From: Blastococcus sp. MG754426
GTDB taxonomy: Bacteria > Actinomycetota > Actinomycetes > Mycobacteriales > Geodermatophilaceae
NCBI RefSeq assembly: GCF_021699055.1
Contig: NZ_SSXC01000001.1
Location: forward strand, 228,975-292,974
Length of the DNA stretch: 64,000 bases
Direction: 5' to 3'
Shown: piece after piece, positions 22,944-25,900 of the stretch
How the letters are laid out: the number at the start of each line of letters is the position of its first letter
Numbering within the stretch: the stretch's first letter is position 1
Notes under the pieces: model-generated
Told to the model about the DNA's origin: nothing
The model's input: the letters and a program-made list of their open reading frames with translations, nothing else
Databases searched by the model: none
Position numbers and translations under genes: made by a program

Positions 22944-25900
22944 GACCGCTCCTCGATCGGGGCCCGGCCGTTGGGCCCGAGCCGTCCGCTGGCGACGCCG
23001 GCCCGGCGGCGGTGCTCCTCCACGAACTCGACCAGCGCCGGTCCGCGGGGCCGCCGCCCGGGCCGGATGTCGCAGGTGGCCACCTTCGACTCCTGGATGT
23101 GCACGTTGGGGTCCATCACGACCCCGAGCAGCTCGTTGGCCGAGTCACCGGTGGTGATGCCGTTCTGCCCCCAGTGGTATGGGATGCCGATCTGGTGCAC
23201 CTCGCGGCCGGCGATCCGCAGCGGGCGCATCCGCTCGGTGACCAGCACCCGCGCCTCGATGGCGTTGCGGGCGCTGACCAGCGTGGCCCAGCCCATGTGC
23301 TCCAGCCCGCGCTCGGCGGCGAGCTGGGGGCTCACCTCGCAGAAGAACTCGGGCTGCAGCTCGGCGAGGTACTCCAGGGTGCGGCTCATCCCGCCGGCGG
23401 TGTGGTGCTCGGTGAGCCGGTAGGTGGTGACGACGAACGGGAAGACCTCGCTCATCGCCGGGTTGGCCCGGTTCCAGGCGCCCCGGAGCTCCTTGCGCGC
23501 GGGGTTCGCCTGCCGCTCGTACAAGGGGTTGGGCACCGGTGACTCGGCCGGCTCGTAGTGCGTCGGCATCGGCCCGTCGGCCAGCCCCGCCGGCACGAAC
23601 AGCCACGCCTTCCCGTCGCCCTGCATGATGAACGGGTCGGTGCCGGAGAGGGCGTCCTCGGCGGTCGCCCCCTCGTCCGGGACGTGGTCGGGCCGCTTGG
23701 TGGCCTGGAAGTCCGGGACGTCGGGCCCGGTCCACTTCCCGGTGTCCTCGTCCCAGTACACGTACTTCTTGCGCTCGCTCCACGGGCGCCCCTGGGGGTC
23801 GGCCGAGGCGCGGTTGTACAGCACCCGGCGGTTCATCGGCCACGCCCAGCCCCACTCGGGCGCCACCAGGTCCTGCTCCGTGCGCGGCTTCTTCCGGTTC
23901 GCCTGGTTCACCTCGTCGGCGAAGACGCCGGAGTAGATCCAGCACCCGCAGCTGGTCGAGCCGTCGTCGGCCAGCTCGGTGTACCCGGACACCGCCGTGC
24001 CGTCCGGCCCGGTACCGCTGATCTCGCGGAGCACCGCGTGCGCGCTGGGTTCGTCGTGGGGCCCGTGCGTCGGGTAGTCCCAGGTGAGCTCGAGGACCGG
24101 CCGGTCGCGGGGGTCGGTGGAGCCGGCGAGCTTCTCGCGGATGGTGCGGCCGAGGTGGAAGTAGAACCAGAGGTCGCTGCGGCAGTCCCCCGGCGGCTCC
24201 ACCGCCTGGGAGTGCCACTGCAGCAGCCGCTGGGTGTTGGTGAACGAGCCGTCCTTCTCCACGTGCGCGGCCGCGGGCAGGAAGAAGACCTCGGTGGGGA
24301 TCTGCTCGGTGACCAGCTCGCCGGTCTCGATCTCGGGGCCGTTCTGCCAGAAGGTCGCGGACTCGATCATCTGCAGGTCCCGGACGACGAGCCACTCGAG
24401 GTTGGCCAGCCCCAGCCGCGACATCTTCCCGTTGGCGTTGCCCACGACGGGGTTCTCGCCGACCAGGAAGTAGCCGGGCACGGTGCCCTGGATCTGCTCG
24501 GCGATGGTCGTGTAGTTGCTGTGGTCGCCGGTCAGCCGCGGCAGGTGGTCGAAGCAGAAGTCGTTCTCCGGCTGCGCGGCCTCCCCCCACCAGGCCTTGA
24601 GCAGGCTGACGGCGTACTTCCGCATGTTGCCCCAGTAGCCGACCGAGCCCGACGCCTCGGCGACGAAGTCGTCCAGGTCCCGGTCCTCGCGGGCGTGCGG
24701 CATCGGGATGTACCCGGGCAGCAGGTTGTACAGCGTCGGGATGTCGGTCGACCCCTGGATGCTGGCGTGCCCGCGCAGGGCGAGGATCCCGCCACCCGGC
24801 CGGCCCATGTTGCCCAGCAGCGCCTGCAGCACGCTCGCGGCGCGGATGTACTGCACACCCACGGTGTGCTGGGTCCAGCCGACCGAGTAGACGAAGGCGC
24901 TGGTGCGCTCGCGCCCCGAGTTGCTGGTCAGCGCGTCGGCCACCTTCAGGAACACGGCGGGCTCGATGCCGCAGACCTCCTGCACCATCTCCGGGGTGTA
25001 GCGCGCGTAGTGGCGCTTGAGCACCTGGAACACGCACCGCGGGTGCTGCAGCGTCTCGTCGCGCTGCGGCTTCCCGCCCACGGGCATCCCCCCGCTGCCG
25101 GCCTGCTCCGAGCTGCCCTCCGAGTGCTCCTCGGCGTCCGGTGCGCTCCCCGGCTGCCCGCCTCCCGCGGAGCCCGAGGCCCCGGGCTTGGGGGCCTGGC
25201 GCTGCCCGGCGGCGGCGGTCACCGACGTGCCCTCGTACTGCCACGTCGTCTCGTCGTACTGCCCCTTCCCGGGGTCGTACCCGGAGAACAGCCCGTCGAG
25301 GTCCTCGGTGTCCCGGAAGTCCTCGCGCAGGATGGCCGCCGCATTGGTGTAGGCGGTGACGTACTCGCGGAACTCCAGGCCGTGGGAGAGCACGTGGTTG
25401 ATCAGCCCGCCGAGGAGGGCGATGTCGCTCCCCGCCCGCAGCGGCACGTGCACGTCGGCCAGCGCGCTGGTGCGGGTGAACCGCGGGTCGACGTGGATGA
25501 CCGTGGCGCCCCGCGCCTTGGCCTCCATCACCCACTGGAAGCCCACCGGGTGGGCCTCGGCCATGTTGGAGCCCTGGATGACGATGCAGTCGGAGTTGGC
25601 CAGGTCCTGCTGCGGCATCGTCGCGCCGCCGCGACCGAACGTGGTCCCCAGACCGGGGACCGTGGAGGAGTGCTATATGCGCGCCTGGTTCTCGACCTGC
25701 ACCGCGCCCAGGGCGGTGTAGAGCTTCTTCATGAGGTAGTTCTCCTCGTTGTCGAGGGTCGCCCCTCCGAGGCTCGCTATCCCCATCGTGCGGTTGACGC
25801 GCTTGCCGTCGACCTCGTCCTGCCAGGTCTCGCGCCGGGTACGGATGACCCGGTCGGCGATCATGTCCATCGCGGTGTCGAGGTCGAGGTCCTCCCACTC

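What the first reader, a model, noticed from the sequence alone, without database searches (positions are those of the whole stretch)
25673..25675. Formate dehydrogenase reads selenocysteine from UAG instead of UGA
The catalytic subunit is a single open frame except for one TAG, located exactly between ...ENQARI and HSSTVPGLGTTFGRG, where FdnG/FdhF enzymes place selenocysteine. Both halves are otherwise intact and the downstream half has no start with a ribosome site. UAG-directed selenocysteine was reported for Geodermatophilus and Blastococcus (Mukai and colleagues, 2016), so this is a code variant previously seen but very rare. Two genes in this window (ending at 60097 and 63920) use TAG as an ordinary stop, so UAG must be read by context.
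Basis: partly seen in the sequence, partly recalled or inferred. Interest (0 to 1): 0.95.

Follow-up and report, generated by a model that had tools for sequence, protein, structure and literature searches.

The report
UAG-encoded selenocysteine in a Blastococcus-like genome
A Blastococcus-like bacterium carries the stop signal UAG inside its formate dehydrogenase gene, where relatives from other families have UGA, and most likely reads it as the selenium amino acid selenocysteine with a matching tRNA found elsewhere in its genome; this is a known code variant, found here in nearly every sampled genome of its family.

Summary
Confirmed. The formate dehydrogenase alpha gene (26233-22940, minus) is open except for one TAG at 25675-25673, at the Sec position, followed by a SECIS-like hairpin with a GGUCU loop. 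The genome carries selC with anticodon CUA in a selD-selC-selA-selB cluster, a second UAG formate dehydrogenase, two UGSC-family genes and one redoxin with UAG. Ordinary genes, selB included, also end in TAG, so UAG must be read by context.

The phenomenon is known (Mukai 2016, recalled; PMC5330540). Added here: all 114 family matches covering the site have TAG; 101 of 108 family genomes with a tRNA-Sec have CUA, 7 (three genera) only UCA. All 48 named relatives from other families have TGA; the 33 with a tRNA-Sec in the fetched DNA all have UCA. Some formate dehydrogenases in the family group with UGA genes of other families yet carry TAG, as if recoded after transfer. Geodermatophilus marinus LHW52908 has a CUA and a UCA tRNA-Sec, one SelB, UAG in formate dehydrogenase and UGSC, and UGA in an AhpD-like gene beside the UCA tRNA: a predicted two-codon selenocysteine code.

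The parts
22940..26233 (-). Formate dehydrogenase alpha subunit gene, GTG start at 26233, TGA stop at 22940, predicted selenoprotein
   Evidence: NF041513 1982.6 bits and TIGR01553 941 bits, both over their cut-offs
25673..25675 (-). In-frame UAG codon at the Sec position (residue 187 from the GTG at 26233)
   Evidence: TAG in all 114 family matches that cover the site
25643..25661 (-). SECIS-like hairpin GGUCCCC-GGUCU-GGGGACC that begins 11 nt after the UAG triplet
   Evidence: inner pairs kept with changes on both sides at one pair, outermost pair often missing in TGA relatives; energy no better than shuffles
26240..26244 (-). AGGAG, likely ribosome binding site of the gene
   Evidence: Sequence; role inferred
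21906..22943 (-). Likely formate dehydrogenase beta (iron-sulfur) subunit, 4-base overlap with the alpha gene
   Evidence: Best NCBIfam match TIGR01582 FDH-beta, 169.7 bits, below its cut-off of 334.7
60095..60097 (+). TAG as ordinary stop of the ORF 58577-60097
63918..63920 (+). TAG as ordinary stop of the ORF 62598-63920

Best explanation
The formate dehydrogenase gene in this window has UAG at its selenocysteine position, and the cell most likely reads that codon as selenocysteine with its CUA-anticodon tRNA-Sec, which SelB would deliver only where a SECIS hairpin follows. Shown by sequence: the UAG, the hairpin, selC with CUA, selA, selB and selD in the same genome, four more genes with UAG at a redox position, and UAG as an ordinary stop elsewhere. 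Inferred: SelA makes Sec-tRNA(CUA), SelB recognises the hairpin and outcompetes release factor 1 at that codon, and the enzyme holds selenium. Also inferred: an ancestor of most of the family changed the anticodon of an existing tRNA-Sec from UCA to CUA, together with the codons of its selenoprotein genes.
For: One in-frame TAG in an otherwise open, full-length gene. CUA tRNA-Sec in a selD-selC-selA-selB cluster. Codon and anticodon go together: 114 of 114 covering family matches TAG and CUA in 101 of 108 family genomes with a tRNA-Sec; 48 of 48 named non-family relatives TGA, and all 33 of them with a tRNA-Sec in the fetched DNA have UCA. Hairpin with conserved loop. Further UAG genes in this genome: second formate dehydrogenase, two UGSC proteins, one redoxin. 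37 CUA and 7 UCA tRNAs of the family differ in a fixed way at four positions only, two anticodon letters and one anticodon-stem pair. PMC5330540 reports UAG/CUA in three Geodermatophilaceae genomes (passages).
Against: No protein or selenium data here. The hairpin folds no better than shuffled sequence, and its outermost pair is missing in 19 of 54 distinct sequences, 18 of them TGA ones. Release factor 1 and pylS were not searched. In the seven UCA-only genomes no formate dehydrogenase of this type was found at E <= 1e-150, so the codon on their side of the switch was not seen. Whether those genera are direct sisters of the CUA group is unsettled.
Confidence: 0.95

Rival explanations
1. UAG is read as pyrrolysine by the tRNA that ARAGORN labels tRNA-Pyl.
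For: ARAGORN calls the tRNA tRNA-Pyl because of its CUA anticodon.
Against: The tRNA is 92 nt with a long variable arm and scores 67.7 bits as tRNA-Sec in Rfam; PMC7609411 (passages) gives tRNA-Pyl a three-nucleotide variable arm. Its neighbours are selD, selA and selB. The aligned codon in relatives of other families is TGA. pylS was not searched.
Confidence: 0.01
2. The TAG is a nonsense mutation or sequencing error in a broken gene.
For: One stop in an otherwise open frame is how a fresh pseudogene looks.
Against: The same codon in 114 of 114 covering matches of the family and in 32 named loci, with the frame otherwise open.
Confidence: 0.01
3. UAG is read through by a near-cognate ordinary tRNA, giving a non-selenium enzyme or two separate chains.
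For: Near-cognate readthrough of UAG exists in bacteria (recalled).
Against: A dedicated CUA tRNA of tRNA-Sec type is present, and codon and anticodon match in the relatives examined. The first ATG after the TAG, at 25618, has no clear ribosome site in front of it.
Confidence: 0.02

Closest known systems
UAG-selenocysteine coding in Geodermatophilus and Blastococcus (Mukai et al. 2016, Angew. Chem.; paper not held, content recalled; followed up in PMC5330540, passages seen)
   Same: CUA tRNA-Sec; UAG in formate dehydrogenases and UGSC-motif proteins; SECIS-type hairpin; same family.
   Different: A further genome. PMC5330540 names three genomes; here 101 of 108 family genomes with a tRNA-Sec have CUA, with UCA-only genera, apparently transferred formate dehydrogenases that carry TAG, and one genome with two tRNA-Sec species.
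Bacterial UGA-selenocysteine coding with SelA, SelB, SelC, SelD and a SECIS
   Same: The same four components, with a hairpin of the same sequence type after the codon.
   Different: Codon UAG and anticodon CUA instead of UGA and UCA; release factor 1 instead of 2 would be the competitor (inferred).
AhpC selenoprotein with UAG of Blastococcus saxobsidens (PMC5330540, passages)
   Same: A PF00578 redoxin in this genome has TAG in a WUPYC motif.
   Different: Not aligned with the published protein; orthology not tested.
NF041238 alkylhydroperoxidase-related (seleno)protein, for the G. marinus gene
   Same: CFYU motif with UGA at the second cysteine position.
   Different: 51.7 bits, under that model's cut-off of 175; over the cut-off of the wider TIGR01926 (112.6 against 81.8).

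Membership tests
UAG-selenocysteine coding system | tRNA-Sec with CUA anticodon | tested here: met
UAG-selenocysteine coding system | UAG at an aligned Sec codon of a selenoprotein gene | tested here: met
UAG-selenocysteine coding system | selA, selB and selD in the genome | tested here: met
   All three over their NCBIfam cut-offs: 421, 290.2 and 392.4 bits
UAG-selenocysteine coding system | SECIS hairpin after the UAG | tested here: met
   Hairpin and loop conserved, though its energy is no better than shuffles; binding by SelB not testable
UAG-selenocysteine coding system | Selenium incorporated at UAG | not testable with these tools
   Needs 75Se labelling or mass spectrometry
Actinobacterial formate dehydrogenase alpha subunit (NF041513) | Score over the curated cut-off | tested here: met
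   1982.6 against 1400 bits
Pyrrolysine coding system | tRNA of Pyl type (short variable arm) | tested here: not met
   Long variable arm, tRNA-Sec model fits end to end
Pyrrolysine coding system | pylS and pylBCD genes | not tested
   No search was made
Two-codon Sec code (Geodermatophilus marinus) | Two tRNA-Sec genes, anticodons CUA and UCA, in one genome | tested here: met
   contig C17 chromosomal
Two-codon Sec code (Geodermatophilus marinus) | Sec-position UAG in some genes and UGA in another | tested here: met
   UAG; UGA:
Two-codon Sec code (Geodermatophilus marinus) | Both codons decoded as Sec in the cell | not testable with these tools
   Needs labelling and mass spectrometry

The most novel reading that the evidence does not exclude
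Geodermatophilus marinus LHW52908 runs two selenocysteine codes in one cell: UAG through the family's CUA tRNA-Sec for formate dehydrogenase and the UGSC protein, and UGA through a horizontally acquired UCA tRNA-Sec for an AhpD-like selenoprotein encoded 315 bases from that tRNA, with one SelB serving both. UGA selenoprotein genes thus enter this UAG family in two ways: their Sec codon is rewritten to UAG after transfer, as the divergent formate dehydrogenases suggest, or they bring their own tRNA.
Probability: 0.6. Interest if true: 0.75.

Novelty: new member of a known kind. Interest (0 to 1): 0.55.

Why it matters
The window shows a stop codon given a second, context-dependent meaning, which standard annotation would cut into two genes. 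The comparison turns a variant reported from a few genomes into a family-wide code change with outgroups on UGA, three genera of the family still on UCA, and a minimal difference between the tRNAs (two anticodon letters and one stem pair). Formate dehydrogenases that look recoded after transfer, and a genome with two tRNA-Sec species, make it testable how a changed code limits gene exchange and whether one SelB can serve two Sec codons.

Tried and rejected
Pyrrolysine reading: rejected on tRNA type and neighbours; pyl genes were not searched. Pseudogene: rejected. Contamination as the source of the second tRNA-Sec of G058: its contig C17 also carries that genome's only Dxs match, and the best matches in the other 25 Geodermatophilus genomes are 83-89% identical, so the contig is chromosomal; misassembly of its first kilobases is not excluded. 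The CUA hit in G230, a genome of another family, lies on a 4,845-base contig whose selD is 88.8% and selA 81.6% identical to the window genome's: taken as a stray contig. The phylum-wide CUA hit in G571 is not a tRNA by ARAGORN. G036 holds two tRNA-Sec, both CUA; possibly mixed strains. Plasmid searches for the G. marinus cassette gave only distant AhpD relatives (under 60% identity) and short DNA pieces, several annotated as IS256 transposase. L208 was dropped from the tree because its stretch lacks the Sec site; one search used 51 of the 99 rows, chosen by hand. G095's tRNA did not fit the pattern and was read.

Full report
WHAT IS THERE. The minus strand of 26233-22940 is one reading frame with a single internal stop, TAG at 25675-25673. 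It lies between ENQARI and HSSTVPGLG, where the aligned codon of formate dehydrogenases from other actinobacterial families is TGA. Read through, the protein matches the model NF041513 (1982.6 bits, cut-off 1400). A likely beta-subunit gene follows with a 4-base overlap (TIGR01582, below its cut-off). The hairpin GGUCCCC-GGUCU-GGGGACC begins 11 nt after the UAG triplet. Its folding energy is no better than shuffles. Across the 54 distinct sequences of 80 named relatives, the fourth pair varies on both sides and is a standard pair in all 54; the outermost pair is missing in 19 (1 of 21 TAG, 18 of 33 TGA); the loop is GGUCU in 21 of 21 TAG and 23 of 33 TGA sequences.

THE MACHINERY. The genome (G000, 99.99% complete) has a tRNA-Sec with anticodon CUA on contig C113 (67.7 bits), with selD on one side and selA and selB on the other. 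The only other Rfam tRNA-Sec hit over the cut-off is a tRNA-Ser. selB itself ends in TAG; of 31 crude gene calls in the window 27 end in TGA, 4 in TAG, none in TAA. So UAG must still be a stop without the hairpin. Four more genes of this genome have TAG at a redox position: a second formate dehydrogenase on C158, two UGSC proteins (PF24696), and one of 16 PF00578 matches, a redoxin with WUPYC on C24. SelD has Cys in its GGGCACKI motif.

HOW WIDE IT IS. Of the 32, 31 bear names of Blastococcus, Modestobacter, Geodermatophilus or Klenkia, and one is a bin titled Frankiales RYN_115 that falls within the same clade. None of the 48 bears the name of a genus of that family. The closest named relative of the window's protein is Blastococcus sp. 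KM273128 (95%), and G001, of the window's genus, has a formate dehydrogenase that is identical, in the part compared, to that of Blastococcus aggregatus. So the window is most likely Blastococcus; its own record may be left out of that collection. In 112 genomes of the family 100 have a match; of 131 matches 114 cover the site, each with exactly one TAG. 108 of 112 genomes have a tRNA-Sec. The anticodon was read in all 108: 101 CUA, 7 UCA only, and one of the 101, G058, has UCA as well. The seven belong to three genera, all in assemblies of 190-550 contigs, and have no formate dehydrogenase match at E <= 1e-150. In the order-wide sample of 397 genomes, 75 of the family matched the CUA pattern and one of the 322 others did, a probable stray contig. 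In the phylum-wide sample of 396, two matched: the window genome and one that is not a tRNA by ARAGORN. Of the 48 TGA loci 33 hold a tRNA-Sec in the fetched DNA, all UCA; 15 hold none.

HOW IT AROSE. 37 CUA and 7 UCA tRNAs of the family (44 of 45 loci given) have only four fixed differences: two anticodon letters and the pair that closes the anticodon loop, T-A to C-G. The CUA rows given are one side of a branch, support 100, in trees of SelA (13 of 45 rows), SelB (3 of 35) and SelD (7 of 35), which fits one origin. Whether the UCA genera are their direct sisters is not settled: holding the family together costs p-AU 0.0498 in SelA and 0.268 in SelB, and is already so in SelD with support 94. 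UGA to UAG needs two changes, so an intermediate (UAA with anticodon UUA, or a spell without the gene) is inferred, not seen.

GENES THAT SEEM TO HAVE COME FROM OUTSIDE. TAG formate dehydrogenases do not form one clade: four changes are needed, at least three forced by well supported branches, and one clade is rejected (p-AU 0.000124). These are quick trees, the question was asked after a first tree, and warns of long branches meeting in the set with G001 and G092. Geodermatophilus sp. TF02-6 (L185; its contig has the length of G057:C1 and the protein is identical) and G038 carry genes in a group of TGA genes from Streptomyces, Saccharomonospora and others (support 100). G104 falls beside a Kineosporiaceae bin (94, not starred) and unresolved in a TGA-rich group. 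All of these carry TAG. The simplest reading, inferred, is that genes from UGA users were kept only once their Sec codon had become UAG. An unsampled donor that uses UAG is not excluded.

A GENOME WITH TWO SEC CODONS. G058 is Geodermatophilus sp. LHW52908, in the taxonomy G. marinus: its contig C70 has the length of NZ_QVQH01000008.1 (229,928) and the formate dehydrogenase is identical. It has the usual CUA selC with selA and selB on C11 and a second tRNA-Sec, anticodon UCA, at C17:1173-1263 (81.8 bits). This lies in a stretch of 59-62% GC (kilobases 1-5 of the contig), with two transposase-like genes beyond it and 69-77% GC from kilobase 6 to 20. 315 bases from the tRNA, C17:1579-2157 encodes an AhpD-like protein with one TGA at the second cysteine of the AhpD motif (CFYU; PF02627 28.2 bits, TIGR01926 112.6 bits, both over cut-off; NF041238 under its cut-off), followed by a hairpin. 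Of 396 genomes of the phylum six have a relative at E <= 1e-25, and all six have exactly one TGA at that same position; one of the six has a UCA tRNA-Sec within the fetched flanks. Of 112 genomes of the family six have a relative at 1e-20, and only G058's has the TGA. G058 has one SelB over the cut-off, TAG in its formate dehydrogenase and UGSC gene, and C17 is chromosomal. So two tRNA-Sec species, two Sec-position codons and one SelB are shown by sequence; that both are decoded, and that the cassette was acquired, is inferred. None of the papers in the listings and passages was seen to report this, but Mukai 2016 was not available, nor were supplements. PMC5330540 (passages) reports bacterial genomes with two tRNA-Sec genes, so two copies as such are not new.

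WHAT WAS KNOWN. PMC5330540 (passages) says that three Geodermatophilaceae genomes carry CUA tRNA-Sec, as reported by Mukai 2016, with UAG in formate dehydrogenases and UGSC-motif proteins, and adds an AhpC with UAG in B. saxobsidens. PMC5133445 (passages) cites UAG in Blastococcus, and PMC10778597 (passages) other stop and sense codons for Sec. From recall, Mukai 2016 confirmed UAG-Sec by 75Se labelling or mass spectrometry. The window is therefore a further member of a known kind.

Noticed in passing
L078:1173-2157 (G058:C17, Geodermatophilus marinus): A second tRNA-Sec, anticodon UCA, beside an AhpD-like gene with an in-frame UGA, in a genome whose other Sec genes found here use UAG.
   Followed up: yes
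G000:C24:928-1209 (L233): A redoxin (PF00578) with TAG in a W-UAG-PYC motif and a hairpin after it: a likely further UAG selenoprotein.
   Followed up: partly
L185, L203-L207, L209-L212: Divergent formate dehydrogenases in family genomes that group apart from the family clade yet carry TAG.
   Followed up: partly
window 18961-19037, 50547-50623, 54267-54343 (minus): Three tRNA-Met (CAT) genes with the same Rfam score in 36 kb.
   Followed up: no
window 12335-12426 (minus): ARAGORN calls a tRNA-Ile here that Rfam does not support at its gathering score; probably spurious.
   Followed up: no
L009:7806-8429 (minus): A WYL-domain protein gene between selD and selC (PF13280); a possible regulator of the sel genes.
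   Followed up: no
L221 (G230:C194): A CUA tRNA-Sec contig in a genome assigned to another family, with selD 88.8% identical to the window genome's; probably a stray contig.
   Followed up: partly
L078:2476-5320 (minus): A JAB-domain gene and two genes without Pfam or NCBIfam matches next to the seleno-AhpD gene of G. marinus.
   Followed up: no
L097 (G079:C4): A partial formate dehydrogenase copy with a disrupted N-terminal frame near a contig end; another partial match lies on C12.
   Followed up: partly
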